Assembly (NCBI GenBank): GCA_013152205.1
Contig: JAADGV010000112.1
Span: 1 to 64,000, forward strand
DNA length: 64,000 bases
Direction of reading: 5' to 3'
Source of the DNA: Planctomycetota bacterium
GTDB lineage: Bacteria > Planctomycetota > Planctomycetia > Pirellulales > Lacipirellulaceae
Shown: in pieces, positions 48,611 through 63,256 of the stretch
Position numbering within the stretch: the first letter of the stretch is position 1
Layout of the letters: every line of letters begins with the position of its first letter
The notes under the pieces: model-generated
What the model saw: the letters and a program-made list of their open reading frames with translations, nothing else
Database searches by the model: none
Told to the model about the DNA's origin: nothing
Program-made: the position numbers and the translations under genes

Positions 48611-48652
48611 AAAAATCAACCTTTTCGCGTCTATTCGCATGATTCGAGGGCT
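48611..48652. repeat. TTTTCGCGTCTATTCGC repeat, copy 1
   Basis: Shares TTTTCGCGTCTATTCGC-N-TGATTCG-N-GGGCT with 54495-54527. Both copies are followed within about 25 bases by TTTTCAxTTTGAG. No gene is involved. Confidence 0.55.
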
Positions 48653-48682: not shown

Positions 48683-49963
48683 TCAGGTGCCGTTCTCTTC
48701 TTCCAGTCGACGTAGCTCTGCCAATAGTGATCGCAGAAAAGGTTCGACATCAGTTACAAGCCCGACGGTTTGAAAGCTGCCGCGGTCGCTGAGTTTGATG
48801 ACGGTCGAGGGATTGATGTCGACGCAAACCACGCTCACCCAAGCCGGGAGCAAATTGCCAACGGCGATAGAATGCAGCGACGTCGCGATCATCAGACAAA
48901 ACGTGACATCGGCGATGCTGGCGCGCATGAGGCGTTGATTTTCCAAAGCATCGGTAACAACGTCTGGCAAAGGGCCATCGTCGCGGATGCTGCCAGCAAG
49001 TTGAAATTCAACGCCATTTTTCACACACTCGTACATGATGCCCGACTTCAGCAAACCTTGTTCGATGGCAGCCGAAATCGATCCGGCGCGGCGAATCTGA
49101 TTGATAGCGCGAAGGTGATGTTCGTGGCCAGCATCGGCTAAGCTCCCCTCTTCGAGGTCGACACCAAGGCTCGTGCCGTAGAGCGATTGTTCGATATCGT
49201 GGGTTGCCAACGCATTGCCGGCGAATAGTTTGTGAATGTAGCGGTCGCGTATCAACTCGCTGACAAGCTCGCCGCTCCCCGTGTGTACAATGGCAGGGCC
49301 ACCAACCAAAAGTGTTTTGCCGCTGCCGGTACGATTGTCGAACAATTGACGAGCGATTTGGCGGATGACAACGCCTTTAGGCTTTTCGGTGGACACGCTG
49401 CTATTCATGAAGGCAAACGCATGACCCTGTTCAACTCGTTCGACCGGAAAAACTCGCGTTCCTTGATGCCCAACAATAATCGGCATTCCTCGCCGAACGT
49501 CAGGCATGGCAACGCATCTCGCTTCCGAGGTGGCAGGATCGACCGTAATGCCACAATCCATTTCTTGCTGAGCAACCGGCTGCCAACTGCCGCTTAGCCG
49601 AACTTCGGTGCGCTGATTGGTGGTGCTGTAGAATCCCTCGGGAAATGCACCCTCGATATCGGCCGAGACCAAGAGGCAATCGTGGCTCGCCGTGGGGACG
49701 GCCCCGTGATCTGCTACTTGGGCCAAAATGCCTTGCAGAGTTCGGTCGTCCGCCGCCTGGACTTCGATGACAGCTGCGCTGGGGTCCGAACGGTTTTGCC
49801 CAACCGTAATATGTTTGATCTGAAACGCCCCGCCCGCCGCGGTGATGCAGTCGAGTACCTTGGGCAAGATGAGGCTATCGATGATGTGGCCGCGAACTTC
49901 CACTTCTTCTATGGATGTTAGTGTTGCCTGTAGGTTGTCGGTTTCGGGGTGTTTGGCAGCCAT
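48683..49963 (-). CDS. TIGR00300 (LOR/SDH-domain) protein, ornithine cyclodeaminase type
   Basis: A 426-residue protein from the ATG at 49963 (AGAGG upstream); the frame extends to a TTG at 50020. The N-terminal LOR/SDH domain (GHIIDSLILPKVLDCITAAGGAFQIKHITVGQ, near residue 27) and the C-terminal nucleotide-binding part (KTLLVGGPAIVHTGSGELV, near residue 220) match the TIGR00300 family. This family includes the archaeal and bacterial ornithine cyclodeaminase that converts ornithine to proline with release of ammonia, and the C-terminal half of the cyanobacterial ArgZ/AgrE enzyme. About 4.7 kb away an ArgZ N-half-like gene (54630) is present. I infer an arginine to proline route. Monocistronic by context. 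Confidence 0.88.
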   Translation of the reverse strand: MAAKHPETDNLQATLTSIEEVEVRGHIIDSLILPKVLDCITAAGGAFQIKHITVGQNRSDPSAAVIEVQAADDRTLQGILAQVADHGAVPTASHDCLLVSADIEGAFPEGFYSTTNQRTEVRLSGSWQPVAQQEMDCGITVDPATSEARCVAMPDVRRGMPIIVGHQGTRVFPVERVEQGHAFAFMNSSVSTEKPKGVVIRQIARQLFDNRTGSGKTLLVGGPAIVHTGSGELVSELIRDRYIHKLFAGNALATHDIEQSLYGTSLGVDLEEGSLADAGHEHHLRAINQIRRAGSISAAIEQGLLKSGIMYECVKNGVEFQLAGSIRDDGPLPDVVTDALENQRLMRASIADVTFCLMIATSLHSIAVGNLLPAWVSVVCVDINPSTVIKLSDRGSFQTVGLVTDVEPFLRSLLAELRRLEEENGT

Positions 49964-50279
49964 GTCGAGGAACCTCTGTTGGGAAGGCGAGGGCGGTAGG
50001 GGCCGATATCTGCTGGGCAATGCCGCGATGCCCTCAATATTTTATCCACTGGCAATTATTCTGAAGAGACCGACTTTTCGGGCTGAATTGGCCTAATCGT
50101 CGACTTCTCTCTGCAAGAAGTCGGCTCATCACCACATTAGCGTACCTTTTCGGCAATGAGGATAGGCCGTATATTGTGTGTATTGGGCGAAGGGCCTGAA
50201 CGCGACAATTTTCAAATAATCTAACATACCGTGGCGTTGAGCTGCGTAGACGTATTTCCGTTTTTCCAATAAAGAGACT
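49964..50279. other. intergenic, no feature seen
   Basis: Divergent promoter region between the TIGR00300 gene and the acidic low-complexity gene. No repeat or structure stands out. Bases 50240-50279 are A/T-rich upstream of the start of the next gene. Confidence 0.35.
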
Positions 50280-51521
50280 ATGGACGACAATAAATCAAAA
50301 TCGCCGTGGGATGAGTTAGCTGACGACCTCGGAGCAGAGCCGGCGGCCGAGTCCTTTGAGCGTAAGCAGCCTCCAGCAACCGATATTCCGACGGTCGCAT
50401 CTGAGACCTCGACCGACTCCCCGCCCGAACCACAGCAAGCGTCGCCCAGCGATTGGAATGCTTTGGCCGGTTCGCTTGGGTTGGAAGTGGAGGACGATCC
50501 CGTCGCCGAAGTCGACGAGCCGGACGAGGTAGCTGCCGAGAAGCCCACCGCCAAGCCCCCAGCGGCCAAGGTTGAGAAGCCGGAGACCGATGGTTTTGCG
50601 GCTGGAGTTTCGGACGATCAAGATTCGATCGAGTCTTTGCCCCCACTGCCCAGCGAAGTCGATCGGGTAATGAGCGAACCCGAATGGTCGGACGACGACG
50701 ATTCTGAGCTTGAAGAAGATTCCGTAGACGAAGATTCCTTAGACGAAGATTCCTTAGACGAAGATTCCTTAGACGAAGATTCTGAAGGCGATGACATTTC
50801 GGAGGATTCTCGCAACGCATTTGATGCCTTGTTTACAGCCAGCGGTTCGGCATGGGCCAGTCCGGCCTCAGAAGCCAAGTCCGAAGAGTCGGCGGAAGAC
50901 CTCTCTAGGTCTTCGGAGCTTGATGCAGAAATTCCGGGAGAAGAGAGCGGCGAGAAATCAGAGGAAGAAGACGAAGAGCAAAGCCCCCGACGACGCAGGC
51001 CACGACGTCGACGCCGTGGGCGTGGGGGCCGTAAGCCTTCGGAAGAGAAATCGGCTTCGAGCGACGACGAAACCACGACCGACGAAGAAGAAGGGGAAGA
51101 AGGGGAAGGGGAAAGCCTTTCAGACAACGTGGCTGCTCCTCAAGACGAGGAAGAAAAGCCACGACGACGTCGACCACGGCGTCGTTCCCGACGTTCGGCT
51201 TCTAGCGGCGATCCAGCGACGGACGATAAAAAACAGAGTGACGAGGTCTTGGATGGCGGTGACGCTGATGACGATCTGGAAGATGGCGATGACGATCTGG
51301 ATGACGGCGGCGACGACGACGAGGGGGCCGAGGGGGCCGATTCGCAGGACGCGGCAAAGTCTCGCTCAAGTCACCGAAATCTTCCTACCTGGGCGGATGC
51401 GATCGGCGGGATTGTCGATTCCAATCTGGAACTACGTAAAAAATCGCCTAGCAAGCCGAACTCCTCGCAGGGTCGTAGCCGGGGCGGACGCCGCCGTGGT
51501 GGCAGCAAAAAGAAAACTTGA
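50280..51521 (+). CDS. acidic/basic low-complexity protein, unknown
   Basis: A 413-residue protein with no recognised domain. The N terminus is MDDNKSKSPWDELADDLGAE, with a similar DWNALAGSLGLE near residue 60. Residues 140-165 hold four EDSxD repeats encoded by a 15-base tandem repeat. Residues 220-345 alternate Asp/Glu-rich tracts and two strongly basic clusters (RRRRPRRRRRGRGGRK and RRRRPRRRSRRS). The C terminus has LPTWADAIGGIVDSNLELRKK and an RSRGGRRRGG tail. The basic/RG clusters suggest nucleic-acid binding, and the acidic tracts suggest a disordered scaffold; both are inference. The W-plus-A IGGIV segment recurs in other planctomycete proteins by my recollection. No signal peptide. 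Confidence 0.7.
   Translation: MDDNKSKSPWDELADDLGAEPAAESFERKQPPATDIPTVASETSTDSPPEPQQASPSDWNALAGSLGLEVEDDPVAEVDEPDEVAAEKPTAKPPAAKVEKPETDGFAAGVSDDQDSIESLPPLPSEVDRVMSEPEWSDDDDSELEEDSVDEDSLDEDSLDEDSLDEDSEGDDISEDSRNAFDALFTASGSAWASPASEAKSEESAEDLSRSSELDAEIPGEESGEKSEEEDEEQSPRRRRPRRRRRGRGGRKPSEEKSASSDDETTTDEEEGEEGEGESLSDNVAAPQDEEEKPRRRRPRRRSRRSASSGDPATDDKKQSDEVLDGGDADDDLEDGDDDLDDGGDDDEGAEGADSQDAAKSRSSHRNLPTWADAIGGIVDSNLELRKKSPSKPNSSQGRSRGGRRRGGSKKKT
50724..50783 (+). repeat. tandem 15-base repeat in coding sequence
   Basis: Four units of TTAGACGAAGATTCC (first unit GTAGACGAAGATTCC, last ending TCT), encoding repeated V/L-D-E-D-S. The near identity of the units suggests recent expansion within the gene. 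Confidence 0.85.
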
Positions 51522-51571
51522 TGCTGCGTTCTTAGGGCCCGCTGGCAGTAAAACTATACGGGGGACTTTTC

Positions 51572-53212
51572 ATGACGTCTGGCTCGCAGCGAGTTGTGGG
51601 CAACGTGGTGGATGTGCTGGCCCGCCGTGTGTTTGCCGCAGAGGTTCTTGTCGTCGAGGGGCGTATTTCGGCAATTGAGCCGGTCGACGCCCAACCTTCG
51701 ACTTTTCTATTGCCGGGATTTATCGATGCCCATGTTCATGTCGAAAGCTCGATGCTGGTGCCGAGCGAATTCGCCCGAGCGGCGGTCGTTCATGGCACGG
51801 TCGCGACCGTAAGCGACCCGCACGAAATTGGCAACGTGCTAGGAGTGGCGGGCGTCCATTACATGCTCGACAACGCGGCTAAGGTGCCTTTTAAGTTTTA
51901 CTTCGGAGCCCCTTCGTGTGTGCCCGCCACGACGTTCGAAACGGCTGGTGCCGAGATCACGGTCGAGGAGGTCGAACAACTGCTAGACGATCCGCGAATT
52001 CTGTACCTCAGCGAGATGATGAATTTCCCTGGGGTGTTGAACAACGACCCGGGATGTATGGCGAAGATTGCCGCAGCTCGGCAGCGAGGCAAACCGGTTG
52101 ATGGGCATGCGCCTGGCTTGCGGGGCGAGGAGGCCGCCCGATATATCGCCGCCGGGATTTCGACCGACCATGAGTGTTTCACCAAGGAAGAAGCGCTCGA
52201 CAAAATCGCGGCGGGGGCAATGATCGCAATCCGCGAGGGTTCCGCAGCTCGCAACTTCGACGCGCTTTATACGCTGATTGGCGAGTACCCCCAGCAAACA
52301 ATGCTCTGTAGCGACGATAAACACCCCGATGAATTGGTGGCTGGGCATATCAATGCCTTAGTTCGCCGTGCGGTCGAGCGGGGGATTGATGTGTTCGATG
52401 CCCTGCGAGTGGCATGTCTCAATCCGATCGATCACTATTCGCTTAACGTCGGCCAATTACGGGTTGGCGATCAGGCCGACTTTATCGAGGTCGATTCATT
52501 GGAGAACTTCGCGGTGCAGCGAACGTGGATTGACGGCAAGGTAGTTGCAGAACGAGGAGCCACCACGATATCGAGAGTCGAGCCGCCAATCGAGAATTAC
52601 TTTGAACCTACCTTGGTCGAGCCCGGCCAGTTGTCTGTGCCTTTCAACGAGGGGATGCTGCAAGTAATCGAGGCGCTCGATGGCCAACTAATTACCAATC
52701 GTCTTTCGGTGCAGCCAACGGTTGTGAAGGGCAAGGTAGTCAGCGATGTCAGTCGCGATATCCTGAAGATGGTCGTCGTCAATCGCTACCGGTCGGCCGC
52801 GCCGGCGGTCGCTTTTATCAAAAACTTTGGGCTAGAACGCGGAGCAATGGCGTCGAGTGTCGCCCACGATTCGCACAACGTGATCGCAGTTGGCGTGAGC
52901 GACGACGATCTCTCGGCTGCAATCAATGCCGTGATGGAATGTCGAGGTGGTTTAAGTGCCGTTTGCCACGCGGATGGCATACGAGAGGTGTTGCCGTTGC
53001 CAGTCGCGGGGCTGATGGCTACCGGTACTTGCGAGGAAGTCGCAGCTGCGTATCAACAGCTTGATGCCGCTGTGAAAAGCTGGGGGTCAAGTTTACGGGC
53101 ACCGTACATGACCCTCTCGTTTATGGCTCTGCTGGTGATTCCCGAACTAAAACTCAGCGACCTAGGGCTCTTCGATGGCGGAAAGTTTGAATTCACCCCG
53201 TCGCTGGCATAG
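51572..53212 (+). CDS. ade: adenine deaminase
   Basis: Deaminates adenine to hypoxanthine in purine salvage; a 546-residue amidohydrolase of the bacterial ADE (not adenosine deaminase) family. Metal-binding residues are in PGFIDAHVHVESSMLVP near residue 55, VSDPHEIGNV near residue 92, and CSDDKHPDEL near residue 246. The C-terminal part has KNFGLERGAMASSVAHDSHNVIAVG near residue 414 and LSDLGLFDGGKFE at the end. The ATG is preceded by GGGGGA. It is separate from the low-complexity gene upstream by 50 bases, and may share its transcript. Confidence 0.95.
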   Translation: MTSGSQRVVGNVVDVLARRVFAAEVLVVEGRISAIEPVDAQPSTFLLPGFIDAHVHVESSMLVPSEFARAAVVHGTVATVSDPHEIGNVLGVAGVHYMLDNAAKVPFKFYFGAPSCVPATTFETAGAEITVEEVEQLLDDPRILYLSEMMNFPGVLNNDPGCMAKIAAARQRGKPVDGHAPGLRGEEAARYIAAGISTDHECFTKEEALDKIAAGAMIAIREGSAARNFDALYTLIGEYPQQTMLCSDDKHPDELVAGHINALVRRAVERGIDVFDALRVACLNPIDHYSLNVGQLRVGDQADFIEVDSLENFAVQRTWIDGKVVAERGATTISRVEPPIENYFEPTLVEPGQLSVPFNEGMLQVIEALDGQLITNRLSVQPTVVKGKVVSDVSRDILKMVVVNRYRSAAPAVAFIKNFGLERGAMASSVAHDSHNVIAVGVSDDDLSAAINAVMECRGGLSAVCHADGIREVLPLPVAGLMATGTCEEVAAAYQQLDAAVKSWGSSLRAPYMTLSFMALLVIPELKLSDLGLFDGGKFEFTPSLA

Positions 53213-53242
53213 GGCAACTTCAACGGTTGCAAATTTGAGCTT

Positions 53243-53368
53243 CTAGAGCAGTTCGTTCAATTATGTAGCCACAGAGTTCACAGAGAACACTGAGAGTAAG
53301 GTTACTCGCCCCAGTATTCTCTCTGTGACCTCGGTGTGCTCTGTGGCTAGCTTTAGGAAATGCTCTAG
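53243..53368. mobile_element. complete CTAGAGCA-type palindromic element
   Basis: A 126-base element with inverted ends CTAGAGCAGTTCGTTC and GGAAATGCTCTAG (11 of the first 13 positions pair) around a palindromic core (GTAGCCACAGAG...CTCTGTGGCTAG). It has the best-preserved pair of ends of its family in this window. Partial copies are at 17736, 18047 and 24382. No target duplication is seen and no gene is inside, so it is a MITE-like candidate. Confidence 0.65.
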
Positions 53369-53867
53369 GCGATTGCAAAGCCAGCGATCTGTGATTGTGG
53401 GAGGCGTCTCCCGACGCCGAAATTCACTGTATTCGACACGCTTGGCGTCAGAGGATCGTGAAAATCCAGCAGAACGGAAATCCACGTAAGTCTTTGTGGG
53501 TAAAGTGTTTATCGCGTATTTCGTGTGGTTTCCAATCACTCAATGGTTATCTAATCAGAAAAATCGTTGACATAATCTTCTCGGGTCACTAGACTACTGT
53601 TACTTCTACTCAGACGAAATATACACCCACGAAATACCTGCTTGCTCGTGAATCTTACTGGTACCAATTAATTTAGTATTCCTGGCGTTTCGCCGGGCTT
53701 CATTGGCTCAATCTGAGCCTCGGTACCTGATCTCTTTTTTTGTCCGCCTTGCGGATGATTTCTGTTTCCCATCGCTTTAGCAAATACGGCTATAGATTGG
53801 GCAACGGTCATGTACTGAGATTTACGTAAGTTTTCGTCCGTCCGATTTTATGAAGAGGGAGTTTAGC
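53369..53867. other. intergenic region, no gene seen
   Basis: About 500 bases after the CTAGAGCA element with no supported gene. It is AT-richer than the surroundings. A GAGGGA ribosome binding site for the small membrane protein lies at its end. Confidence 0.35.
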
Positions 53868-54212
53868 ATGCAAAACACAATCCTAATGACAATCGTATCC
53901 ACACTTTTTTCGGTAAGTTTCTTAGCGCTGGTTGGAATGGTTTGGACCATGATTCAGAAGCGTACTGCCGAGTGCAATGGTAATACCGCACTCGGAACCT
54001 TGTACGCAGGTTTCTTGCCAAAGCCATCGACCGCGATTGCATCGATAGCTGCGGTTCAAAGCCGAAAAGTAACTCGTCGTCGGGTTAGCCGTCGTCGCAG
54101 CGCTTGGGGATTTTCCACAGCCATGCGTCCTGTCCCCTCTCTCAACGCCGGACGCAAGTTGAGCCGTCGTCGTCAGGCACAGGCAAAGTCGACTCGGCGT
54201 GCCCCTCGCTGA
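53868..54212 (+). CDS. small single-pass membrane protein with Arg-rich tail
   Basis: A 114-residue protein; the ATG at 53868 is preceded by GAGGGA seven bases upstream, better than the in-frame ATG at 53850. A membrane segment covers about residues 4-30 (ILMTIVSTLFSVSFLALVGMVWTMI). The remainder is soluble and increasingly basic, with SRKVTRRRVSRRRSAW near residue 68 and KLSRRRQAQAKSTRRAPR at the end. Not recognised. The basic tail could bind nucleic acid or acidic phospholipid. A strong terminator follows, supporting it as a real transcript. Confidence 0.6.
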   Translation: MQNTILMTIVSTLFSVSFLALVGMVWTMIQKRTAECNGNTALGTLYAGFLPKPSTAIASIAAVQSRKVTRRRVSRRRSAWGFSTAMRPVPSLNAGRKLSRRRQAQAKSTRRAPR

Positions 54213-54246
54213 TCATACTGAACAGAGAATGCTGAAATCGGACGAG

Positions 54247-54294
54247 TACGCCGGACGTGAGAGTGTCTATTGCTCTTGCGTTCGGCGTATTTTA
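54247..54294 (+). terminator. strong terminator of the small membrane protein gene
   Basis: TACGCCGGACGTGAGAG and CTCTTGCGTTCGGCGTA pair over 17 positions with a few G-T pairs, around a nine-base loop, followed by TTTTA. It begins 35 bases after the stop codon. Confidence 0.75.
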
Positions 54295-54494
54295 TGTTTG
54301 GGGGTACGCGGAGGAACGTAGATGAGGCGGATATTCTCGGATCAGAAAGAAAATCCAAAAAATAGACGTTGCCCTATTTTTTGCACGAGAGTTGTGGAAA
54401 TGTCTGAACAAGGTCGTCTTTCTTAGCAGCAAAAATCTGTAAAATTCGTGTTCTATCCTTCTTCACTTCGCTGAAGAAATGCTAAAAAACGAGC

Positions 54495-54527
54495 CTTTTT
54501 CGCGTCTATTCGCCTGATTCGCGGGCT
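54495..54527. repeat. TTTTCGCGTCTATTCGC repeat, copy 2
   Basis: Second copy of the repeat at 48611-48652, in the gap (54213-54629) between the small membrane protein and the arginine-dihydrolase-type gene. I see no other gene in that gap. Confidence 0.55.
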
Positions 54528-54629
54528 CCTTTCTTTTCAGTTTGAGGGAGTAATGAAGACACATCTACTAACCAGATCAAACACCCGTAGCCGCTTCTAC
54601 CCACCCTTTCTCTCGTCCAAACAACCAAC

Positions 54630-55454
54630 ATGCCCAAGCCCGCTCCTCATATTTTGATGTGCCCGCCAGACTACTATGGCATCGAATATGAGATCAATCC
54701 GTGGATGAGTACCGAGCGTCAAGCCGACCACGGCTTGGCTGTCGAACAGTGGCAACAACTCTATGAGTGTCTAGTCAAAGCGGGCGCCGAAGTCTCTAAG
54801 TTAGCGCCTCAGACAGGGCTTCCCGACCTCGTCTTTACGGCCAACGCGGCGATTGTCTACCAGCATCAGGCGGTTCTAGCACGATTTAAGCACAAGCAGC
54901 GTCAGGGCGAAGAGCAGCACTTTTGTCGCTGGTTGGAAGATCATGGCTTGCGCGTTCAAGAAGCGCCTGGCGATTTTTCGTTTGAAGGTGCGGGCGACGC
55001 TTTGTTTTGTGGCGAAACATTATATGCGGGCTATCGAATGCGAAGCGATGCCGGCGGACATCAGGAGATCGGCAAACTGCTTGGCGTGCGTGTCTTGCCT
55101 TTGGAGTTGGTCGATCCTTACTACTACCACCTCGATACATGCTTCTGCCCACTGGCCGTAGACGAAGCGATTTACTTTCCTGGGGCATTCGACAGTTATG
55201 GCCTGCAGGTGCTTGCCGAACACGTCCCCAAGTTGATTGCCGTTGAAGAAAGCGAAGCCCGTAGCTTTGCGTGCAATGCCGTGGTTGTAGGTCGTACGGT
55301 CATTACCAACACTGGCTGCCCGCAGCTTCACAAGCAGCTCGAACAAGCGGGCTACTCGCCGATTGCGACGCCATTGGGCGAATTTGTCAAAGCCGGCGGC
55401 AGCGCTAAGTGCTTGACCTTACGACTCGATGGCGAAGAAGCCGCCGACTGGTGA
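54630..55454 (+). CDS. arginine dihydrolase-type amidinotransferase-fold enzyme (ArgZ N-domain like)
   Basis: A 274-residue member of the guanidino-group modifying superfamily. N-terminal MCPPDYYGIEYEINPWM matches the cyanobacterial ArgZ/AgrE N-terminal half. An Asn in LVFTANAAIVY (residue 72) corresponds to the residue reported to distinguish arginine dihydrolase from arginine deiminase. The catalytic His is in YYYHLDTCFCPL near residue 170 and the nucleophile Cys is Cys261 in AGGSAKCLTLRL. ArgZ hydrolyses arginine to ornithine, CO2 and two ammonia. Dimethylarginine hydrolase is the main alternative. The TIGR00300 partner half is encoded separately at 48683, not fused. Confidence 0.85.
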   Translation: MPKPAPHILMCPPDYYGIEYEINPWMSTERQADHGLAVEQWQQLYECLVKAGAEVSKLAPQTGLPDLVFTANAAIVYQHQAVLARFKHKQRQGEEQHFCRWLEDHGLRVQEAPGDFSFEGAGDALFCGETLYAGYRMRSDAGGHQEIGKLLGVRVLPLELVDPYYYHLDTCFCPLAVDEAIYFPGAFDSYGLQVLAEHVPKLIAVEESEARSFACNAVVVGRTVITNTGCPQLHKQLEQAGYSPIATPLGEFVKAGGSAKCLTLRLDGEEAADW

Positions 55455-55464
55455 AAAATCTGGG

Positions 55465-56085
55465 CTAGACGGTGTTCGGCGGCGATTCCTTTGCCAACGC
55501 ACTGATCTTTTTGAATTCCTCGGTCCCTGCTCGCACACACCACTCGAAAAAGGCCGACTCGGTGGTTGTCAGCACGGCCCCCGACGCTTCCATCCGACGC
55601 AGGGCAACCTCATAATCGGCTGGATACCGAGATGTAACGGCATCGACAGCCACGATCACCTGATACCCAGCAGCCAACAGATCTAGCACCGTTTGCTGCA
55701 CGCAAACATGGGCTTCGATGCCGCAGACCAAAACTCGCTGTATTCCTACTTCGCGCCACTCAGAAAAAATCTCGCCACATTCTCCACAACTAAATGCCTG
55801 CTTGCCAGCGGGTTTGGTTTCCAACCGCTCAGCTAATGATGAGACGGTCGGCCCTAATTTCTCAGGGTACTGCTCGGTTGCGTAGGTCCGCACCCCCAGC
55901 ACCTTGGCAGCATCGAGCAGCCGCCTGATATTCCATACGACAGGCTCAATTCCCGTCTGCACGACGACCAAGCGTTCTTGCACGTCGACGACCAACATCG
56001 CTGTATCTTCGCGACGCATCAATTCAGGACTTCGTGGCAACCCTGCAGGCTGCTCAGAGCGATTGTCTGGAGAAGGGGCGGTCAT
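55465..56085 (-). CDS. isochorismatase-family cysteine hydrolase
   Basis: A 206-residue hydrolase of the isochorismatase/nicotinamidase superfamily. The catalytic Asp is in MLVVDVQERLV near residue 30; the Lys is in ETKPAGKQAFSC near residue 95; the nucleophile Cys is in VCGIEAHVCVQQT near residue 125. The YCAC/ISOC1-type layout fits small-molecule amidase or deaminase activities; the substrate is unknown. The last Cys motif ACVxxT is well preserved. It converges with the arginine-dihydrolase-type gene (10 bases between stops), so not co-transcribed. A CSGECGE Cys pair (FSCGECGEIF) is unusual for the family and may be structural. Confidence 0.85.
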   Translation of the reverse strand: MTAPSPDNRSEQPAGLPRSPELMRREDTAMLVVDVQERLVVVQTGIEPVVWNIRRLLDAAKVLGVRTYATEQYPEKLGPTVSSLAERLETKPAGKQAFSCGECGEIFSEWREVGIQRVLVCGIEAHVCVQQTVLDLLAAGYQVIVAVDAVTSRYPADYEVALRRMEASGAVLTTTESAFFEWCVRAGTEEFKKISALAKESPPNTV

Positions 56086-56180
56086 CGGTGCCTACCGGTA
56101 TATTGTTGAAGGAAACCAAGATTCAAGTCCCCCATGATACGCCCTGCCCACGACGAATCCCAGTGCTTGCTTTAAGTTCC

Positions 56181-56292
56181 CAGGACGATTCCAAAGTCAC
56201 TAATTCTGTAGTAGCTGCGGGCGGAAGCCGCAGTTTTTTCAGCCTCGACCACAGCTTCCGCCTGCGGCTAGCATGACTTTGCAATCGTCCTG
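56181..56292. mobile_element. MITE-like element, CAGGACGATT family, tree-core type
   Basis: Inverted ends CAGGACGATTCCAAAGTC and GACTTTGCAATCGTCCTG match at 17 of 18 positions. They are the same ends as the element at 21668-21822, but the core is different: a hairpin of the CTGCGGGCGGAAGCCGCAG and CTTCCGCCTGCGGCTAG type. No direct repeat flanks this copy. It has no gene. Confidence 0.7.
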
Positions 56293-56373
56293 GCAGCCCC
56301 CCCCTAGCCGTGCGACAGATGGTTGGCGAGAATGGATGGCTCCCCTCTTTTTTATCCCCATATTGTTCACATT

Positions 56374-56913
56374 ATGAAAACACGCTCGACAACGATACTC
56401 ACAGTCCGCCACAACGGCCAAGTTGCCATGGGAGGCGATGGCCAAGTCACCATGGGTCAAACCGTGGTGAAGTCTGACGCAGTGAAAATCCGCCGGCTGG
56501 TGGACGACCGCATCCTGGTAGGTTTTGCTGGGGCGGCGGCCGACGCCTTTGCCCTGATGGAACGGCTGGAAGCAAAGCTGAAAGATTACCCAGCCAACCT
56601 GCCCCGTGCGGTAACCGAACTAGCCAAGGAATGGCGTACCGACCGTGCCCTACGTCGACTCGAAGCCTTAGTGGCGGTGGTCAACGACGAGCATACTTTT
56701 CTGTTGTCGGGCACAGGCGACGTGATACAGCCTAGCGATGGCATCCTTGGCATCGGCTCGGGAGGCAACTACGCCTTGGCAGCTGCCCGAGCATTGGTCG
56801 ACAATTGTTCGCTTTCAGCAGCCGAGGTGGTGCGAAAATCGCTAGAGATCGCTGGCGATATCTGTGTCTATACGAATCGCAATATAGTCATCGAAGAGCT
56901 TAACGAGGCCTAG
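56374..56913 (+). CDS. hslV: HslV, proteolytic subunit of the HslUV protease
   Basis: ATP-dependent proteasome-like protease subunit, 179 residues. The mature N-terminal catalytic Thr is in [22 protein letters not shown] (the first residues KTRS form a short propeptide). [17 protein letters not shown] and [16 protein letters not shown] are conserved. The frame is open back to 56323, but the ATG at 56374 gives the family start. The hslU gene follows directly, as is usual. It degrades unfolded or tagged cytoplasmic proteins, with heat-shock regulation common, though no heat-shock promoter was verified here. Confidence 0.96.
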
Positions 56914-56988
56914 CCACTGGGGCCTTTGTCTATTTTTACAGCACAAAATCGCTCGCCTTTTTTTGGGCGGTTACTGAAAGATATCAAC

Positions 56989-58335
56989 GTGAAAAACCTG
57001 ACTCCCCGAGAAATCGTCGAAGAACTTAACCGGCACATTGTAGGTCAAGCCGACGCAAAACGTGCGGTGGCGATCGCTATCCGCAACCGTTGGCGCCGTC
57101 AGCAATTGGACGAAGAATTCCGTAAGGAAGTAGCCCCCAAGAACATCCTGATGATTGGCCCCACCGGCGTCGGCAAAACCGAAATCGCCCGCCGACTGGC
57201 TACGCTCACCGGCGCACCGTTCATCAAAGTCGAAGCGTCGAAGTACACCGAAGTGGGCTACTACGGCCGCGATGTGGAAAGCATGGTCCGCGAGTTGGTC
57301 GAGAATGCGATCGGTCTGGTTCGCGAACGCGAAATGGCCAACGTCAAAGAAGAGGCTGAGCGACGTGTCACCGAACGGCTGGTCGACCTTCTAGCTCCTG
57401 CGCCTGCCTCGTTTGATGTTGGTGTTGATACTAGCGATTCGCCTGAGCGATACGAACGTACTCGCGAAAAAATGCGGGCAATGCTCGTCAACGGCGAACT
57501 AGAGACACGCAAAGTCGAACTTTCGATCGAGCAAAAAGCCCAAGCAATGATGATCCCTGGCATGGGCGGGCCAGGCAGCGAAGGGGTTGATTTTGATATG
57601 CAGGGCATGCTCGAAAAGTTTTTGCCGAAGAACGTCATCCACCGCGAGTTGACTGTCGCCGAAGCCCGAAAAGTTCTCTTCGACCAAGAGTGCGAAGCAC
57701 TGATCGATCAAGACAAGATCAACGCTTTGGCCATCGAGTTGGCTGAAGACACAGGCATTATTTTTCTCGACGAAATCGACAAAGTGGTCGCCAGCGAAGG
57801 GGGCCGAGGTGCGGATGTTTCGCGCCAGGGTGTCCAACGCGACTTGCTACCAATCGTCGAAGGCACCACCGTCCAAACTCGCTACGGTTATGTTCGCACC
57901 GACCATGTCTTGTTTGTCGCCGCGGGTGCGTTCCACTCGACCAATCCGAGCGATTTGATGCCCGAGCTTCAAGGCCGATTCCCGATTCGCGTGGAGCTTG
58001 ATGACCTGACGAAAGACGACTTTATTCGTATCCTTGCCGAGCCACGTAATGCGTTGACGAAGCAATATGTTGCACTGCTGGATACCGAAGGCGTCAAAAT
58101 CGAGTTCAAAGACGACGCCATCGAATCGCTAGCCACCTATGCCTATCAGGTTAACCAATCGACCCAAAACATTGGTGCCCGACGTCTCCAGACGATCATG
58201 GAACGCTTGCTCGAAGAGCTTAGCTTCGAAGCACCAGACATGAAAATGGGTCGGGTCGAGATCAATGCCGCCTACGTTCACGAACGGCTGGAAGAGATCG
58301 CCAAAGACGAAGACCTCAGCAAATTCATTTTGTAG
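56989..58335 (+). CDS. hslU: HslU, ATPase subunit of the HslUV protease
   Basis: AAA+ unfoldase of 448 residues. I use the GTG at 56989, because translation then begins KNLTPREIVEELNRHIVGQ as in the family; the frame also permits a TTG at 56926. Walker A is GPTGVGKT near residue 54; the pore loop is GYYGRDVES near residue 83 (E. coli has GYVGKEV); Walker B is GIIFLDEIDK near residue 260; the sensor 2 Arg is in NIGARRLQTI near residue 400; and the C-terminal LSKFIL docks into HslV. The 75-base gap after hslV and the same order imply one operon. Its end overlaps the convergent tsaE by 11 bases. Confidence 0.96.
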   Translation: MKNLTPREIVEELNRHIVGQADAKRAVAIAIRNRWRRQQLDEEFRKEVAPKNILMIGPTGVGKTEIARRLATLTGAPFIKVEASKYTEVGYYGRDVESMVRELVENAIGLVREREMANVKEEAERRVTERLVDLLAPAPASFDVGVDTSDSPERYERTREKMRAMLVNGELETRKVELSIEQKAQAMMIPGMGGPGSEGVDFDMQGMLEKFLPKNVIHRELTVAEARKVLFDQECEALIDQDKINALAIELAEDTGIIFLDEIDKVVASEGGRGADVSRQGVQRDLLPIVEGTTVQTRYGYVRTDHVLFVAAGAFHSTNPSDLMPELQGRFPIRVELDDLTKDDFIRILAEPRNALTKQYVALLDTEGVKIEFKDDAIESLATYAYQVNQSTQNIGARRLQTIMERLLEELSFEAPDMKMGRVEINAAYVHERLEEIAKDEDLSKFIL

Positions 58336-58810
58336 AAGACGCTTTGGCGGCCAATTGTTCAACCATTTTATCCGCGGTCGGCGAACTGCCGGTCAAAATG
58401 AACTCGCGTTTGCTTTCCTCCAACACCTCAATCTGAATCTTTAGGTAGTCGAGCGGCAGGCAGCGTTCGACTCGGTCGGCCCATTCCACAAAGGTAAGCC
58501 CTTCTCGATCAAAATACTCTTCCGGCCCTAGCTCTAAAAATTCGTCTTCGTCGCGGAGTCGGTAGGTATCGAAGTGGTAGATCGGACGACGCCCTTCAGT
58601 GTATTCATTCACCAGGACAAACGTAGGGCTGGTGACCCTCTTGGCTGGCACCCCCATCGCAGTCGCCACGCCTTGAACCAATCTCGTTTTCCCCGCACCC
58701 AATGTGCCGACAAGCGCTATCGCGGTGCCAGCAGGCAACACGTCGGCAAGCAATTTCCCCAAACGGTCGGTAGAACTCTCGTCGTCTGCGATATAACGAA
58801 ACTCAGTCAT
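58325..58810 (-). CDS. tsaE: TsaE, tRNA threonylcarbamoyladenosine biosynthesis ATPase
   Basis: A 161-residue P-loop ATPase that activates the TsaB-TsaD complex making t6A37 in tRNAs. Walker A is VGTLGAGKTRLVQG near residue 38; SPTFVLVNEYTEG near residue 62 and HFDTYRLRDEDEFLELG near residue 78 hold the conserved Asp and Glu; FVEWADRVERCLP near residue 106 is typical. It is downstream of thiL with 25 bases between, so one operon. The stop overlaps hslU. Confidence 0.95.
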   Translation of the reverse strand: MTEFRYIADDESSTDRLGKLLADVLPAGTAIALVGTLGAGKTRLVQGVATAMGVPAKRVTSPTFVLVNEYTEGRRPIYHFDTYRLRDEDEFLELGPEEYFDREGLTFVEWADRVERCLPLDYLKIQIEVLEESKREFILTGSSPTADKMVEQLAAKASSTK

Positions 58811-58835
58811 TTGTTGCCTTGATGTTCACAGCCAC

Positions 58836-59768
58836 TTAATGTTCATAGCCACATGGGGCAAGCGGCAAACGCTTGCCTGCCTGATCGATCTGCCAAAGTC
58901 CGGGGGTCTCGATAAGTTCGCCGATGCGAGTCACTGGGACATTCAGCGGCTGATCCGCCAAAATTTTCTCGGCAACATCTGCGGATGCCGCCAGTACCAA
59001 TTCAAAATCTTCGCCGTCAGACATCGCGTGTTCAAGGGCTGATCGTCCATCTTGTTCGCTTAGCCGATGGGCAGCCTCCGCAATAGGCAGGGCTGACAGA
59101 TCGAGCACCGCCCCAACCCCGCTCGCCTTGGCCAGCCGCGACACATCGAGCGACAACCCATCAGAGATATCCATTCCCGCAGTCAACTCGTAGCGTTGAT
59201 GAAGTTCGAGGGCTTCCGTAACCCTCGGCTCAACAGCCAAATGCCGACCAAGAATGCTCCCGCCCAATTTTCCGGTGACCAACAGCTGATCGCCCACTTG
59301 GCCACCACTTCGGGTGAGTGGCCCCTGCGAAGTAGTTTCGCCGATAGCCGTGATGCTTACGACCAAGGGTCCATCCCAAGCATTGGTATCGCCGCCTGCA
59401 ATCGTTACTTCGAATCGTTCAGCTAGCGGTATCATACCGCGATACATGTCGATCGCTAGCTCTAACGGCGTTCGTGTTGCCGTCCCCTGCCGCGGCAAAA
59501 CCAACGAGACAAACGCTGCCACAGGCCGAGCTGCCATCGCCGCCAGATCGCTGAGATTCACGCCGAGAGACTTATGCCCGATCTGCTGCGGATCGACTTG
59601 ATCGACCAAAAAATCGACACCATCGGTCAGCGTATCGGTAGTCACTACCGTATTGCCCCCCCCAACCTGGCCCAATACCGCAGCATCATCGCCCAGACCT
59701 ACTAGCTCGCGCGAGCTGGTAGGCAGGTTCTCACCGAGCCATGCAATAAGTTCGCTTTCCAATGCCAT
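58836..59768 (-). CDS. thiL: thiamine-monophosphate kinase
   Basis: Phosphorylates thiamine monophosphate to the active diphosphate cofactor. A 310-residue PurM/AIR synthase-like fold. GLGDDAAVL near residue 24, VTTDTLTDGVDF near residue 42 and the metal/nucleotide motif TIAGGDTNAWDGP near residue 122 are family hallmarks; TAGMDISDGLSLDVSRLA near residue 197 and MSDGEDFELVLA near residue 251 follow. No TPP riboswitch was seen upstream. Pairs with tsaE downstream, a pairing also seen in other bacteria as thiL neighbours vary. Confidence 0.94.
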   Translation of the reverse strand: MALESELIAWLGENLPTSSRELVGLGDDAAVLGQVGGGNTVVTTDTLTDGVDFLVDQVDPQQIGHKSLGVNLSDLAAMAARPVAAFVSLVLPRQGTATRTPLELAIDMYRGMIPLAERFEVTIAGGDTNAWDGPLVVSITAIGETTSQGPLTRSGGQVGDQLLVTGKLGGSILGRHLAVEPRVTEALELHQRYELTAGMDISDGLSLDVSRLAKASGVGAVLDLSALPIAEAAHRLSEQDGRSALEHAMSDGEDFELVLAASADVAEKILADQPLNVPVTRIGELIETPGLWQIDQAGKRLPLAPCGYEH

Positions 59769-59833
59769 GGGTTACGGCCCTTACCAATTTTTCTTTGAGT
59801 CGAAACTTCTTCGCCGCCAACTACAAGGCCACA

Positions 59834-59923
59834 AGTTCTGTTATAGCCGCAAGCGGAAGCTGCGGTCTCCTAGCCTCGACCACGGCTTCCGCCTGCGGCT
59901 AGTATGACTTTGTAATTCTCCTG
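59834..59923. mobile_element. degenerate MITE-like element, CAGGACGATT family
   Basis: The right end GACTTTGTAATTCTCCTG (59906-59923) and the core (ATAGCCGCAAGCGG, CTTCCGCCTGCGGCTAG) match the element at 56181-56292. The left end has decayed. It lies in the thiL-csrA gap (59769-60185), where no gene is supported; the rest of that gap is AT-rich without a convincing promoter match. Confidence 0.55.
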
Positions 59924-60185
59924 ACCAAGCCCCACCTCTACCGTTGCTTGGCGGGGAGATTTACCCCAAAAACCGAACCCCCATTTCGCGCCCACTGCCT
60001 AAACTACCATCATTTTGTACAAAACTTGGCTTTTTTGCTAGCCAAACAGCTTGCAAACGGCACTAGCTATCACTACCGTTACGCTAAAGCGGGTTGCTAG
60101 TCAGCACGTAAGTTTCACGGGGTAAGCTGGTTTCGGCCTGTAGTGGTGTTCTTCTAACTGCGTGGGGAGAAAGGGAGTTCGCGAC

Positions 60186-60446
60186 GTGTTAGTTGTGTCT
60201 CGAAAAGTTGGCGAGCGTATCATCATTGGCGACAAGATCACGGTAACCGTGGTCAAGATCGGCAGTGGCGGTGTGCGTATCGGTATCGATGCCCCCACTG
60301 AAATGGCTGTCATGCGCGAGGAACTGTCCGAAAAAATCCGCCAGGAAGAACGCGACCGACAGCTGCGTGCCGAGGAGCAATCACATGCCGAGAGTCAATC
60401 GCTCGAGGCTGCCCAATCACCCAACACGGATGGCGATCCTTCTTAA
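60186..60446 (+). CDS. csrA: CsrA/RsmA translational regulator
   Basis: An RNA-binding protein that controls translation and stability of mRNAs by binding GGA motifs. I use the GTG at 60186, with AGGGAG eight bases upstream, which gives the family start (LVVSRKVGERIIIGDKITVTVV). The conserved core continues to VRIGIDAPTEMAVMREEL. The total is 86 residues; the tail after about residue 60 (RDRQLRAEEQSHAES...) is longer than in E. coli CsrA (61 residues) and hydrophilic. In flagellated bacteria CsrA is often beside fliW; no such neighbour is present here. Confidence 0.95.
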   Translation: MLVVSRKVGERIIIGDKITVTVVKIGSGGVRIGIDAPTEMAVMREELSEKIRQEERDRQLRAEEQSHAESQSLEAAQSPNTDGDPS

Positions 60447-60458
60447 CTGGCCCACGTT

Positions 60459-60503
60459 CCTCTGGTTACTTACGACCGGGCCTCTGGTTATTTTACGACC
60501 GGG
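60459..60503. repeat. tandem 22-base duplication at the ftsQ end
   Basis: CCTCTGGTTACTTACGACCGGG (60459-60480) is followed at once by CCTCTGGTTATTTTACGACC plus GGG (60481-60503). The second copy contains the stop codon of the FtsQ-like gene. A related codon duplication (TPRTVKK twice) lies in its C terminus. Confidence 0.75.
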
Positions 60504-61474
60504 GTTTCTTCGTCGGTGGCAGGGTTTTTCTTCACCGTTCGTGGCGTGAGAGTTTTTTTAACCGTCCGAGGGGTGATGGCCAGTTCTTTGCGTACATCAA
60601 CCACCGCTGGCCCACGCACCGAGTCTAATGAACCATGTTCCTCGGCATACTTTTGCAGACGCTTCAGCTTGGTCTCGAACGTATCCTCGCCGGGCAAGCC
60701 TTTGTCTTGAGCGGCCCCCCAGACGATTCTTGTGCCTCCGCTGGTAATCAAATCGAACACAAAGTAGCGTTGGTCGTCCTGAATCTCTTGGCGGGCGGAA
60801 GGCAATATGTCGACCAGATGAAGCGACTCCCACACGTCGGATAACCCCTCTGCCAATTCAGCGGCTCCGGCAACGCGGGGGTCGGTCCATGGTTGCCCGA
60901 CCGGTGGGCGACCAATGATACCGCCGATACGCGGAAGATAACGCTTGCGAATCTCTGGCACATCAGCCGCGGGCAATTGCACACCGAGGCGATCGACGGG
61001 AATGAGTTCCACCCCCCGTGGGCCCCCCAGTTCGACAACGGCTGCAGGCCGGCGGAATGTTAGGTCGACATGAACCTGAGGTGGATAACTCTTGGTGATT
61101 CGATCGACCGATTCCACCCAAGGATGAAGCACAAAGGCATCTCTCACCACGTTCACAAAGGCATCGTCCAGCACCGACAAACGGCGATCCAGGGCTGAGT
61201 TATGCACCACTTCGGCCCGCACGTCTGCCGTGATCCACTCAGGCAATGCGGTGGTGGTAATATGGTTGGCCGTGAGCAAGTAACGATCTCGGTGGATAAC
61301 CGACGGAGCAACTTGCTGCCAAGCCAACTGCAATCCCCAGCCCAAGAAGACGACCACAGCCAGCACGACCACGACCCGAATCCGCCGGCGCAATTTCGAC
61401 CTCGGCTGAGTCTGGGGGCTTTTGGACGGCACCTTGTCCGATCCGTTGCGTCGTTTTTTCTTAAACCGTGCCAC
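60488..61474 (-). CDS. FtsQ/DivIB-like divisome membrane protein
   Basis: A 328-residue bitopic membrane protein; the start is a GTG with GGAGGT six bases upstream. A basic cytoplasmic N terminus (ARFKKKRRNGSDK) precedes one membrane segment near residues 34-52 (VVVVLAVVVFLGWGLQLAW). The periplasmic part has a POTRA-like region (DAFVLHPWVESVDRITKSYPPQVHVDLTFRRPAAVVEL, about residues 110-150). The C terminus is basic with a TPRTVKK repeat. It lies 43 bases downstream of murB, the usual dcw arrangement (murB-ftsQ). FtsQ normally links early and late divisome parts; planctomycetes lack FtsZ, so a role other than FtsZ-ring division is expected. Confidence 0.82.
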   Translation of the reverse strand: MARFKKKRRNGSDKVPSKSPQTQPRSKLRRRIRVVVVLAVVVFLGWGLQLAWQQVAPSVIHRDRYLLTANHITTTALPEWITADVRAEVVHNSALDRRLSVLDDAFVNVVRDAFVLHPWVESVDRITKSYPPQVHVDLTFRRPAAVVELGGPRGVELIPVDRLGVQLPAADVPEIRKRYLPRIGGIIGRPPVGQPWTDPRVAGAAELAEGLSDVWESLHLVDILPSARQEIQDDQRYFVFDLITSGGTRIVWGAAQDKGLPGEDTFETKLKRLQKYAEEHGSLDSVRGPAVVDVRKELAITPRTVKKTLTPRTVKKNPATDEETPVVK

Positions 61475-61516
61475 TGCAACACCTCCGTGCGCTGTCAGTA
61501 TCCGTCGCCGCTCGAA

Positions 61517-62401
61517 CTACCAGATTTCAAGCTCTGTTTCCAACTCGACCCCTAGCCGCTCGGCAACGCGGCTGCGAATGATATCCATCAAACGCAACAC
61601 ATCCTGACTGGTCGCACCTTCGTTGGCCACGATAAAATTGGCATGTCGTTGGCTTACTTCAACCGCCCCCACGCTAGTTCCCTTGAGTCCGGCTTGATCA
61701 ATCAGAATACCAGCACTCATGCCGCGAGGGTTCTTAAAGACGCTAGCGACGTTCTGATACGACAGCGGTTGCCCTGCCTTTTTAACGATCCACTGCTTCT
61801 GCATCCGCTTCGTCAATTGCTCGGGGTCGTCGTCTTCCAACTGAAATTCGGCACTAAGAATGACAAGCTCATCAAGGCTACTCTGCCGATAAGCGAAAAC
61901 CAAGTCTTCGCGGTCTCGCTGCAAGATCTCGCCCGATCGAGTCATCACCGTCGCGCGACAAGCCCACTGGCCGATGTCTCCGCTACGGCTGCCGGCATTG
62001 CCGTGCAAGGCGCCGCCGATTGTGCCAGGAATGCCAACCAATGGTTCGAGCCCTGCTAGGCCTGAACGAACGGTCTCGCTGATGGCATGAGCTAGCTTGG
62101 CACCGCCACCGGCGACGAGCCGACCATCGCGAATTTGGATATCCGTGAAGACGGCACCGGCGAGGCTTACGACCATGCCGTGTACGCCCTCGTCGCGGAC
62201 AAGAACATTGGAACCGCTGCCGAGAACACGGATCGGAACCTCTTCGTCGCAACAACGGCGAACCAGAGCCGCTAGCTCGTCAACCGACTTTGGCTCGGCA
62301 TAGAACGTCGCAACGCCCCCCAGCTTGAGCCAAGTACGGGCGCCAAGCGGCTCGTCACGTAGAACAATTTTTTCAAAACCGCTAACTAATGTCATCGCCA
62401 C
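61517..62401 (-). CDS. murB: UDP-N-acetylenolpyruvoylglucosamine reductase
   Basis: Reduces UDP-GlcNAc-enolpyruvate to UDP-MurNAc in peptidoglycan synthesis. A 294-residue FAD-dependent enzyme with VLGSGSNVLVRDEGVHGMVV near residue 58 and LEPLVGIPGTIGGALHGNAGSRSGDIG near residue 119 in the FAD domain, and FKNPRGMSAGILIDQAGLKG near residue 220 with the catalytic Ser. The start is GTG at 62401 (or ATG two codons in). It precedes the FtsQ-like gene in the same operon. Its presence supports the modern view that planctomycetes have peptidoglycan. Confidence 0.95.
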   Translation of the reverse strand: MAMTLVSGFEKIVLRDEPLGARTWLKLGGVATFYAEPKSVDELAALVRRCCDEEVPIRVLGSGSNVLVRDEGVHGMVVSLAGAVFTDIQIRDGRLVAGGGAKLAHAISETVRSGLAGLEPLVGIPGTIGGALHGNAGSRSGDIGQWACRATVMTRSGEILQRDREDLVFAYRQSSLDELVILSAEFQLEDDDPEQLTKRMQKQWIVKKAGQPLSYQNVASVFKNPRGMSAGILIDQAGLKGTSVGAVEVSQRHANFIVANEGATSQDVLRLMDIIRSRVAERLGVELETELEIW

Positions 62402-62644
62402 AATTTCCTCGGAAAAGCAGGCTCCATGGTGACCGGTTCGCTGCTCGCCGTCAATCTGGGCTATTCTAGCCGAAAGCTGATTGGCACCTACTTCTGCTTG
62501 GTAACCCTATCGGATCGCCCAGTTACCGGGGTAGAGAACAAGTACCGTTGCTCCGATCATGCTGTAGCCGCCGGCGATAATAGTCGGGAAATTGGCTTTC
62601 CGGGGTCGATTTTTCTCAAGCTGGGGCCACAGGAGCGATTGTAG

Positions 62645-63130: not shown

Positions 63131-63256
63131 GGCCGTCTGTTGGCTGCTTCTTTCAATGACTGGCAAACGAGCAAAAGTCGACTCTTATGGCTGCGGTTGG
63201 AATTTACTATGATAGCAGACTTAAATTATTCACGCTATCAAAGGAGATTCAACACC

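What the first reader, a model, noticed from the sequence alone, without database searches (positions are those of the whole stretch)
48683..55454. Split ArgZ/AgrE: arginine dihydrolase and ornithine cyclodeaminase as two nearby genes
The 54630 gene resembles the N-terminal half, and the 48683 gene the C-terminal (TIGR00300) half, of the fused cyanobacterial ArgZ/AgrE enzyme. Together they would turn arginine into ornithine and then proline. Here they are separate, on opposite strands, 4.7 kb apart. This is a possible non-fused, planctomycete form of the pathway.
Basis: partly seen in the sequence, partly recalled or inferred. Interest (0 to 1): 0.7.

Follow-up and report, generated by a model that had tools for sequence, protein, structure and literature searches.

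The report
Two-gene arginine-to-proline pathway
Two neighbouring genes very probably make the enzymes that turn arginine into ornithine and then proline; cyanobacteria do this with one fused protein, but a two-gene form is found in several other bacterial phyla, and here a local DNA flip has pulled the pair apart.

Summary
The two genes are real. The 54630 protein matches the arginine dihydrolase half of ArgZ/AgrE (49-50% identity, fold match, catalytic Asn, His and Cys kept). The 48683 protein is a full-length TIGR00300 ornithine cyclodeaminase, over the curated cut-off.

The arrangement needs correcting. In 20 of the 28 family genomes that carry both genes, they lie head to tail on one strand, cyclodeaminase first. 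The window's opposite-strand layout is a derived inversion of about 4.5 kb, seen in no other of the 28. The two-gene form is not planctomycete-specific: 44 of 80 related loci, labelled as at least six phyla, have the cyclodeaminase gene directly upstream. The fused form is one clade: two cyanobacterial enzymes plus two planctomycete genomes.

The genome also holds a proline dehydrogenase and larB, larC and larE (nickel-pincer cofactor genes); no arginase was found. In three other genomes PutA lies near the pair.

NCBI's cut-offs for arginine dihydrolase and for mycobacterial-type dimethylargininase are both missed, so substrate choice rests on orthology and context. A new variant of a known pathway, of moderate interest.

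The parts
54630..55454 (+). Arginine dihydrolase (ArgZ-type, GME fold), 274 aa, stand-alone
   Evidence: ArgZ/AgrE E ~1e-76; N72, E119, D123, H167, C261 kept; predicted model, top hits ArgZ/AgrE, TM 0.88
48683..49963 (-). Ornithine cyclodeaminase (TIGR00300), 426 aa from the ATG at 49963 (the TTG at 50020 would give 445 aa)
   Evidence: 505 bits, cut-off 410.8; majority residue at all 53 most conserved positions
48698..53204 (.). Block inverted relative to close relatives: cyclodeaminase gene, an acidic/Arg-rich ORF (50280..51521) and adenine deaminase (51572..53212)
   Evidence: in G020, G017 and G015 this block has the other orientation relative to 54642 onwards; G011 shows the same for the cyclodeaminase and adenine deaminase genes, without a match to the acidic ORF
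48622..48651 (+). Dispersed 30-bp intergenic repeat, copy just outside the cyclodeaminase end of the inverted block
   Evidence: 2 copies in the window; 35 copies in the genome
54497..54526 (+). Second copy of the same repeat, upstream of argZ, on the other side of the inverted block
55465..58335 (.). Unmoved neighbours that anchor the comparison: isochorismatase-family hydrolase (55465..56085, -), proteasome-family ORF 56323..56913 (HslV-like) and ORF 56926..58335 (HslU-like by recall, no family search made)

Best explanation
The two genes encode a two-enzyme arginine breakdown route. The 54630 protein hydrolyses arginine to ornithine, CO2 and two ammonia through a Cys261 thiol intermediate, with Asn72 needed for the second hydrolysis (mechanism carried over from ArgZ, the role of the Asn recalled). 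The 48683 protein then converts ornithine to proline and a third ammonia. Proline probably goes on to glutamate through a proline dehydrogenase encoded elsewhere in the genome. It works like cyanobacterial AgrE cut into two proteins. The usual layout of the two-gene form is an operon-like pair, cyclodeaminase first; in this genome an inversion of about 4.5 kb has broken it. Shown here: sequence, conserved residues, fold match, co-occurrence, conserved adjacency, gene order. Inferred: both activities, the flux direction and the cofactor.
For: ArgZ/AgrE and TIGR00300 matches; catalytic residues kept in the window protein and in 113-114 of 114 aligned ArgZ-type proteins; predicted model closest to ArgZ and AgrE crystals, DDAH behind. 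Both genes occur in the same 28 of 43 family genomes. Cyclodeaminase gene directly upstream on the same strand in 20 of those 28 and in 44 of 80 loci labelled as at least six phyla (two loci are in both sets). PutA (PutA_N + Pro_dh + Aldedh) within about 1.6 kb of the pair in 3 of the 44. Proline dehydrogenase present and arginase not found in the own genome. An archaeal cyclodeaminase, MMP_1218, is reported to make proline from ornithine (passage of PMC10809761 citing Burnat 2019); that it is the TIGR00300 protein of structure 3c2q is recalled.
Against: The 54630 protein misses both relevant NCBI curated cut-offs: arginine dihydrolase NF052232 (295.6 of 450) and mycobacterial-type dimethylargininase NF045659 (272.8 of 300). 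I have no biochemical data on these proteins. 17 of 24 planctomycetes with an over-cut-off cyclodeaminase lack an ArgZ-type protein by my 300-bit line, so the cyclodeaminase is not tied to ArgZ; 11 of the 80 genomes with ArgZ show no cyclodeaminase core. In the window the pair is broken, so co-expression cannot be assumed. The catalytic Cys lies at the edge of a low-confidence end of the model.
Confidence: 0.8

Rival explanations
1. The 54630 protein is a dimethylarginine (or other guanidine) hydrolase rather than an arginine dihydrolase, and its link to the cyclodeaminase gene reflects a wider arginine role.
For: It scores nearly as well on the mycobacterial-type dimethylargininase model (272.8) as on the arginine dihydrolase model (295.6), and below both cut-offs. 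Pfam gives only a DDAH domain.
Against: Structural and sequence neighbours are ArgZ/AgrE, not the solved DDAHs; conserved adjacency to a cyclodeaminase gene in loci of at least six phyla. Rv2323c, the protein that I take to lie behind the dimethylargininase model, is itself needed to make proline from arginine in vivo (abstract and discussion of PMC4569260).
Confidence: 0.1
2. The pair serves proline (or ornithine) supply or an ornithine-ammonia cycle rather than arginine breakdown as a nutrient.
For: An archaeal cyclodeaminase of this kind is placed in proline biosynthesis; in cyanobacteria ornithine may re-enter arginine synthesis (PMC8262935). 17 of 24 sampled planctomycetes with the cyclodeaminase lack ArgZ.
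Against: Proline dehydrogenase is present in the own genome and PutA is near the pair in three other genomes, which points to onward oxidation. Proline synthesis genes of this genome were not searched.
Confidence: 0.15
3. The opposite-strand layout is an assembly artefact and the true genome has the usual adjacent pair.
For: The genome is a 130-contig draft and a 30-bp repeat lies at both ends of the inverted block.
Against: Both repeat copies have the same orientation, which would not give a false inversion, and 30 bp is short for an assembler to confuse (general knowledge). The contig is 70.5 kb long. No reads were available.
Confidence: 0.08

Closest known systems
AgrE (Alr4995) of Anabaena and ArgZ (Sll1336) of Synechocystis, fused arginine dihydrolase/ornithine cyclodeaminase
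   Same: Both catalytic halves match: 50% and 49% identity for the dihydrolase (AgrE, ArgZ) and 43% for the cyclodeaminase (AgrE); same catalytic residues.
   Different: Two separate proteins here; when linked, the gene order is cyclodeaminase then dihydrolase, the reverse of the fused protein. The fused proteins form their own clade.
Archaeal LOR/SDH protein 3c2q of Methanococcus maripaludis (MMP_1218 by recall), ornithine cyclodeaminase
   Same: Unfused protein, 48% identity over 312 residues.
   Different: Archaeal, described for proline biosynthesis; here partnered with an arginine dihydrolase gene.
Mycobacterial Rv2323c-type protein (NCBIfam NF045659, named dimethylargininase)
   Same: Stand-alone protein of the same superfamily; NF045659 is the third-best NCBIfam model for the window protein. 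Loss of Rv2323c stops arginine-to-proline conversion.
   Different: Window protein is below its cut-off; the mycobacterial cluster pairs it with ornithine aminotransferase.
DDAH of Pseudomonas aeruginosa and mammals
   Same: Same fold and, by recall, Cys/His chemistry.
   Different: About 20% identity and a lower fold score, TM 0.74-0.78 against 0.82-0.89.

Membership tests
ArgZ-type arginine dihydrolase | Catalytic Cys (C264 of ArgZ/AgrE), the His of the YHLDTC motif (recalled as catalytic) and Asn71 (mutants solved as 6jv1, 6lrh, 6juz) | tested here: met
   C261, H167 and N72 of the window protein; N and H in 114 of 114 aligned proteins, C in 113 with one gap
ArgZ-type arginine dihydrolase | ArgZ fold rather than DDAH as nearest structure | tested here: met
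   Foldseek ranks 1-13 are ArgZ/AgrE chains (TM 0.82-0.89), DDAH from rank 14
ArgZ-type arginine dihydrolase | NCBIfam NF052232 curated cut-off (450 bits) | tested here: not met
   295.6 bits; a fused planctomycete ArgZ-cyclodeaminase protein (L145) also fails with 346.2, so the cut-off is strict
ArgZ-type arginine dihydrolase | Arginine to ornithine + CO2 + 2 NH3 | not testable with these tools
   Needs an assay
TIGR00300 ornithine cyclodeaminase | Curated cut-off 410.8 bits over the whole model | tested here: met
   505.3 bits, positions 4-407 of 407
TIGR00300 ornithine cyclodeaminase | Conserved residues of the family | tested here: met
   The window protein has the majority residue at all 22 invariant and 31 near-invariant (97% or more) positions of a 110-row alignment; which of them are catalytic was not established
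TIGR00300 ornithine cyclodeaminase | Cofactor: nickel-pincer nucleotide (NCBIfam name) or NAD (6lrg title) | tested here: inconclusive
   larB, larC (LarC1 model) and larE are in the genome, so NPN can probably be made; 6lrg is titled as a complex with NAD+; the nearest outside fold in the 50 rows shown is deoxyhypusine synthase, an NAD enzyme
Bifunctional AgrE/ArgZ (NF052231) | Both domains in one polypeptide | tested here: not met
   Two ORFs on opposite strands; 300 and 417 bits of 1025
Mycobacterial-type dimethylargininase (NF045659) | Curated cut-off 300 bits | tested here: not met
   272.8 bits

The most novel reading that the evidence does not exclude
A two-protein arginine-to-proline pathway, encoded by a conserved cyclodeaminase-argZ gene pair, is a widespread form of this chemistry in at least six bacterial phyla, and the cyanobacterial fusion is a minority offshoot. 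The LOR/SDH N-terminal domain may be the part that couples the two enzymes: it lies between them in the fused form and survives alone as a 75-96 aa gene directly before argZ in six of six Melainabacteria-type genomes of the 80, in which no cyclodeaminase core was found.
Probability: 0.3. Interest if true: 0.6.

Novelty: new variant of a known kind. Interest (0 to 1): 0.42.

Why it matters
If right, an arginine breakdown route described from cyanobacteria is common in bacteria of several other phyla, where the first enzyme falls between two NCBI family models and its Pfam label is DDAH. It gives a set of unfused enzymes on which to test whether fusion brings channelling of ornithine, and an unfused cyclodeaminase on which to settle the NAD versus nickel-pincer question.

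Tried and rejected
Considered and rejected: that the opposite-strand split is the normal planctomycete form (20 of 28 family genomes have the pair head to tail); that the inversion is shown to come from recombination between inverted repeats (the two flanking repeat copies have the same orientation); that a third gene belongs widely to the pair. For the last, neighbours of 77 of the 80 loci were clustered and the 18 largest clusters read: besides the pair itself there was an aldehyde dehydrogenase/PutA cluster in 5 loci of three phyla (PutA in three), a downstream neighbour in 8 of the Verrucomicrobiota loci, and small or lineage-bound clusters not followed up. A set of 31 weaker hits (117-215 bits) in 149 planctomycete genomes looked like ArgZ; six of them were used as the outgroup of the tree and held together at 99.

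Two of them (L164, L165) are contigs of family genomes and so appear twice in the 114-row alignment and in both linkage counts. Phyla are read from record titles, mostly of metagenome-assembled genomes, and some contigs may be misassigned. Several unlinked loci have under 500 bp upstream, so 44 of 80 is a lower bound. Gaps are between match ends, not gene ends. The Fisher value ignores relatedness and I give its size no weight. Family genomes without the pair include several under 85% complete. Rows dropped: three cyclodeaminase rows left out of the tree as too gappy; one family genome (G016) with a 45-residue ArgZ-like fragment and one (G030) with 25-bit TIGR00300 hits counted as lacking both genes. 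In the phylum search 57 of 149 genomes had a TIGR00300 match at E 0.001, many of them about 20-bit hits to one 65-residue stretch; 24 passed the cut-off and five more scored 390-403. The 300-bit line for ArgZ-type is mine, placed in the gap between 316 and 215 bits; one of the seven above it (G187) has a stop codon counted inside the match. Both trees are quick searches with SH-aLRT support only, with long outgroup branches; the Melainabacteria rows have odd letter make-up and their sister position has 90. The cyclodeaminase model superposes well on ArgZ and 3c2q but poorly on AgrE chains (TM about 0.5, rmsd about 20). Papers on ArgZ and AgrE themselves (Zhang 2018, Burnat 2019, Zhuang 2020, Lee and Rhee 2020) are not held; what I say of ArgZ chemistry is recalled, apart from structure titles and the letter PMC8262935 (whole text). 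Paper searches for an unfused form: (listings; one search found no paper); for nickel-pincer and cyclodeaminase: (no paper; listing on nickel-pincer and LarA), with passages of PMC11796402 and a term search of PMC12611868 without a match.
Full report
What is there. The window holds an ORF at 54630..55454 (+, 274 aa) and one at 48683..50020 (-, 445 aa from TTG; 426 aa from the ATG at 49963, the likelier start). The first matches the N-terminal half of the solved cyanobacterial enzymes AgrE and ArgZ at E about 1e-76, with the best true DDAH at 3e-11. The second matches the C-terminal half of AgrE at 7e-102, the archaeal protein 3c2q at 8e-102 and TIGR00300 over its full length, 505 bits against a cut-off of 410.8. 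Identities are 50% and 49% (dihydrolase to AgrE and ArgZ), 43% (cyclodeaminase to AgrE) and 48% (to 3c2q).

Residues and fold. The Cys mutated in 6lrh and 6jv1 aligns with C261, and the Asn mutated in 6juz (N71S) with N72. In 114 aligned ArgZ-type proteins, the two cyanobacterial references included, N72, E119, D123, R138, H167 and D169 are invariant, and C261 is present in all 113 without a gap there. The predicted model of the window protein (mean pLDDT 83.9, weak over residues 262-274, next to the catalytic Cys) has ArgZ and AgrE chains as its 13 best matches and DDAH after that. The cyclodeaminase has the majority residue at all 22 invariant and 31 near-invariant positions of a 110-row alignment. 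Its model (mean pLDDT 83.8) matches AgrE, ArgZ and 3c2q, then deoxyhypusine synthase.

Naming gap. The 54630 protein misses the NCBI cut-off for arginine dihydrolase (295.6 of 450) and for mycobacterial-type dimethylargininase (272.8 of 300). Seven further stand-alone ArgZ-type proteins that I scanned (three planctomycete, one each labelled Nitrospirota, Myxococcota, Cyanobacteria and Dormiibacterota) also miss both, and a fused planctomycete protein misses the first too (346.2). I therefore say that the window protein works like an arginine dihydrolase and branches with ArgZ, and do not file it under the NCBI equivalog.

Gene linkage in the family. In 43 genomes of the window's family, 28 have both genes and none of the other 15 has a credible full copy of either (one 45-residue ArgZ-like fragment in G016; several of the 15 are incomplete). 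Of the 28, 20 have the cyclodeaminase gene upstream on the same strand (17-1830 bp between match ends), 5 have the genes on different contigs, 1 has them far apart, 1 has a fused ORF in the ArgZ-cyclodeaminase order (G029, 725 aa), and 1 is the window.

The inversion. In the close relatives G020, G017 and G015 the block of cyclodeaminase, acidic ORF and adenine deaminase has the opposite orientation relative to argZ, the isochorismatase gene and the two genes after it; G011 shows the same without a match to the acidic ORF. DNA alignment of G020 shows window 48698-53204 on one strand and 54642-63136 on the other, while in G020 the two ORFs are about 27 bp apart. The window's layout is thus derived. 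A 30-bp repeat occurs twice in the window, at 48622 and 54497, outside either end of the block, and 35 times in the genome. Both copies have one orientation, so I do not claim that they caused the inversion. In the four relatives aligned, the DNA held beyond adenine deaminase does not match the window, so the far breakpoint is not fixed.

Beyond the family. Of 80 named loci with an ArgZ-type gene, 44 have the cyclodeaminase directly upstream on the same strand (-6 to 500 bp between match ends, median 48): labelled Planctomycetota 23, Verrucomicrobiota 9, Nitrospirota 4, Myxococcota 2, Chloroflexota 2, Omnitrophota 1, unplaced 3. I searched the genomes of the other 36: 24 have TIGR00300 over the cut-off elsewhere, 1 has a fragment, 6 (Melainabacteria type) have only the N-terminal domain, and 5 have no credible copy. 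Draft assemblies make absence weak. In 149 planctomycete genomes across the phylum, 7 have an ArgZ-type protein by my 300-bit line and all 7 have TIGR00300 over the cut-off; 17 of the 24 with TIGR00300 over the cut-off have no ArgZ-type protein.

Trees. The fused dihydrolase domains (AgrE, ArgZ, G029, G119) form one clade (SH-aLRT 97), next to the unfused Melainabacteria (90); the window lies in a 66-row, almost wholly planctomycete clade of unfused proteins (96). The fused cyclodeaminase domains (AgrE, G029, G119) also form one clade (99). The simplest reading is one fusion, shared by cyanobacteria and two sampled planctomycetes, against a broad background of unfused pairs.

Pathway context. 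The own genome has a proline dehydrogenase domain in a 1233-aa frame, larB, larC (LarC1 model) and larE over their cut-offs, and no arginase match, although 9 of 14 control genomes rang; the genome is 93% complete. In L225, L233 and L234 (two Nitrospirota, one Omnitrophota) a PutA protein with PutA_N, proline dehydrogenase and aldehyde dehydrogenase domains lies next to the pair or, in L233, about 1.5 kb away. This is independent support for arginine to ornithine to proline to glutamate.

Cofactor. NCBIfam names TIGR00300 nickel-pincer nucleotide-dependent, while 6lrg is titled as AgrE with ornithine and NAD+. A 2024 paper notes that about 15% of genomes analysed, including many cyanobacteria, have larB, larE and larC but no larA, and suggests other NPN-binding proteins (passage of PMC11796402). 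This fits the NCBI name but does not prove it; I leave the cofactor open.

Related literature. Rv2323c, which I take from the model's name to be the protein behind the mycobacterial dimethylargininase model, is needed for growth on arginine and for making proline from arginine in a species with no recognised arginase gene (abstract and discussion of PMC4569260). That would fit an arginine dihydrolase; a 2024 review instead describes it as an arginine demethylase as well (passages of PMC11008464). PMC8262935 (whole text) gives the AgrE reaction: arginine to proline through ornithine with one CO2 and three ammonium.

Verdict.

Noticed in passing
L217:4973-5200, L227:3539-3766, L232:7732-7968, L237:7695-7985, L238:4398-4625, L240:163-390: In six of six Melainabacteria-type genomes of the 80 a 75-96 aa ORF holding only the LOR/SDH N-terminal domain (PF04455) lies directly upstream of argZ, and no cyclodeaminase core was found in those genomes.
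   Followed up: partly
48622-48651 and 54497-54526: Dispersed 30-bp intergenic repeat (TTTTCGCGTCTATTCGCGTGATTCGCGGGC type), 35 copies in the genome with up to 3 mismatches and none for the reversed control pattern; not found in the other loci held at that time.
   Followed up: partly
L028/L032/L081 (G029) and L103/L145 (G119): Two planctomycete genomes carry a cyanobacterial-type fused ArgZ-cyclodeaminase protein; one belongs to the window's own family.
   Followed up: yes
L146-L163: A separate DDAH-like subfamily (SGGSVFCLK motif in many) occurs in 31 of 149 planctomycete genomes at 117-215 bits; its function is unclear. Six members were used as the outgroup of the ArgZ tree.
   Followed up: partly
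L189: Contig labelled Bacteroidales whose ArgZ nests inside Gemmataceae: probably a misassigned genome or contig.
   Followed up: no
53850-54212: 120-aa ORF between the inverted block and argZ, with no Pfam match.
   Followed up: no
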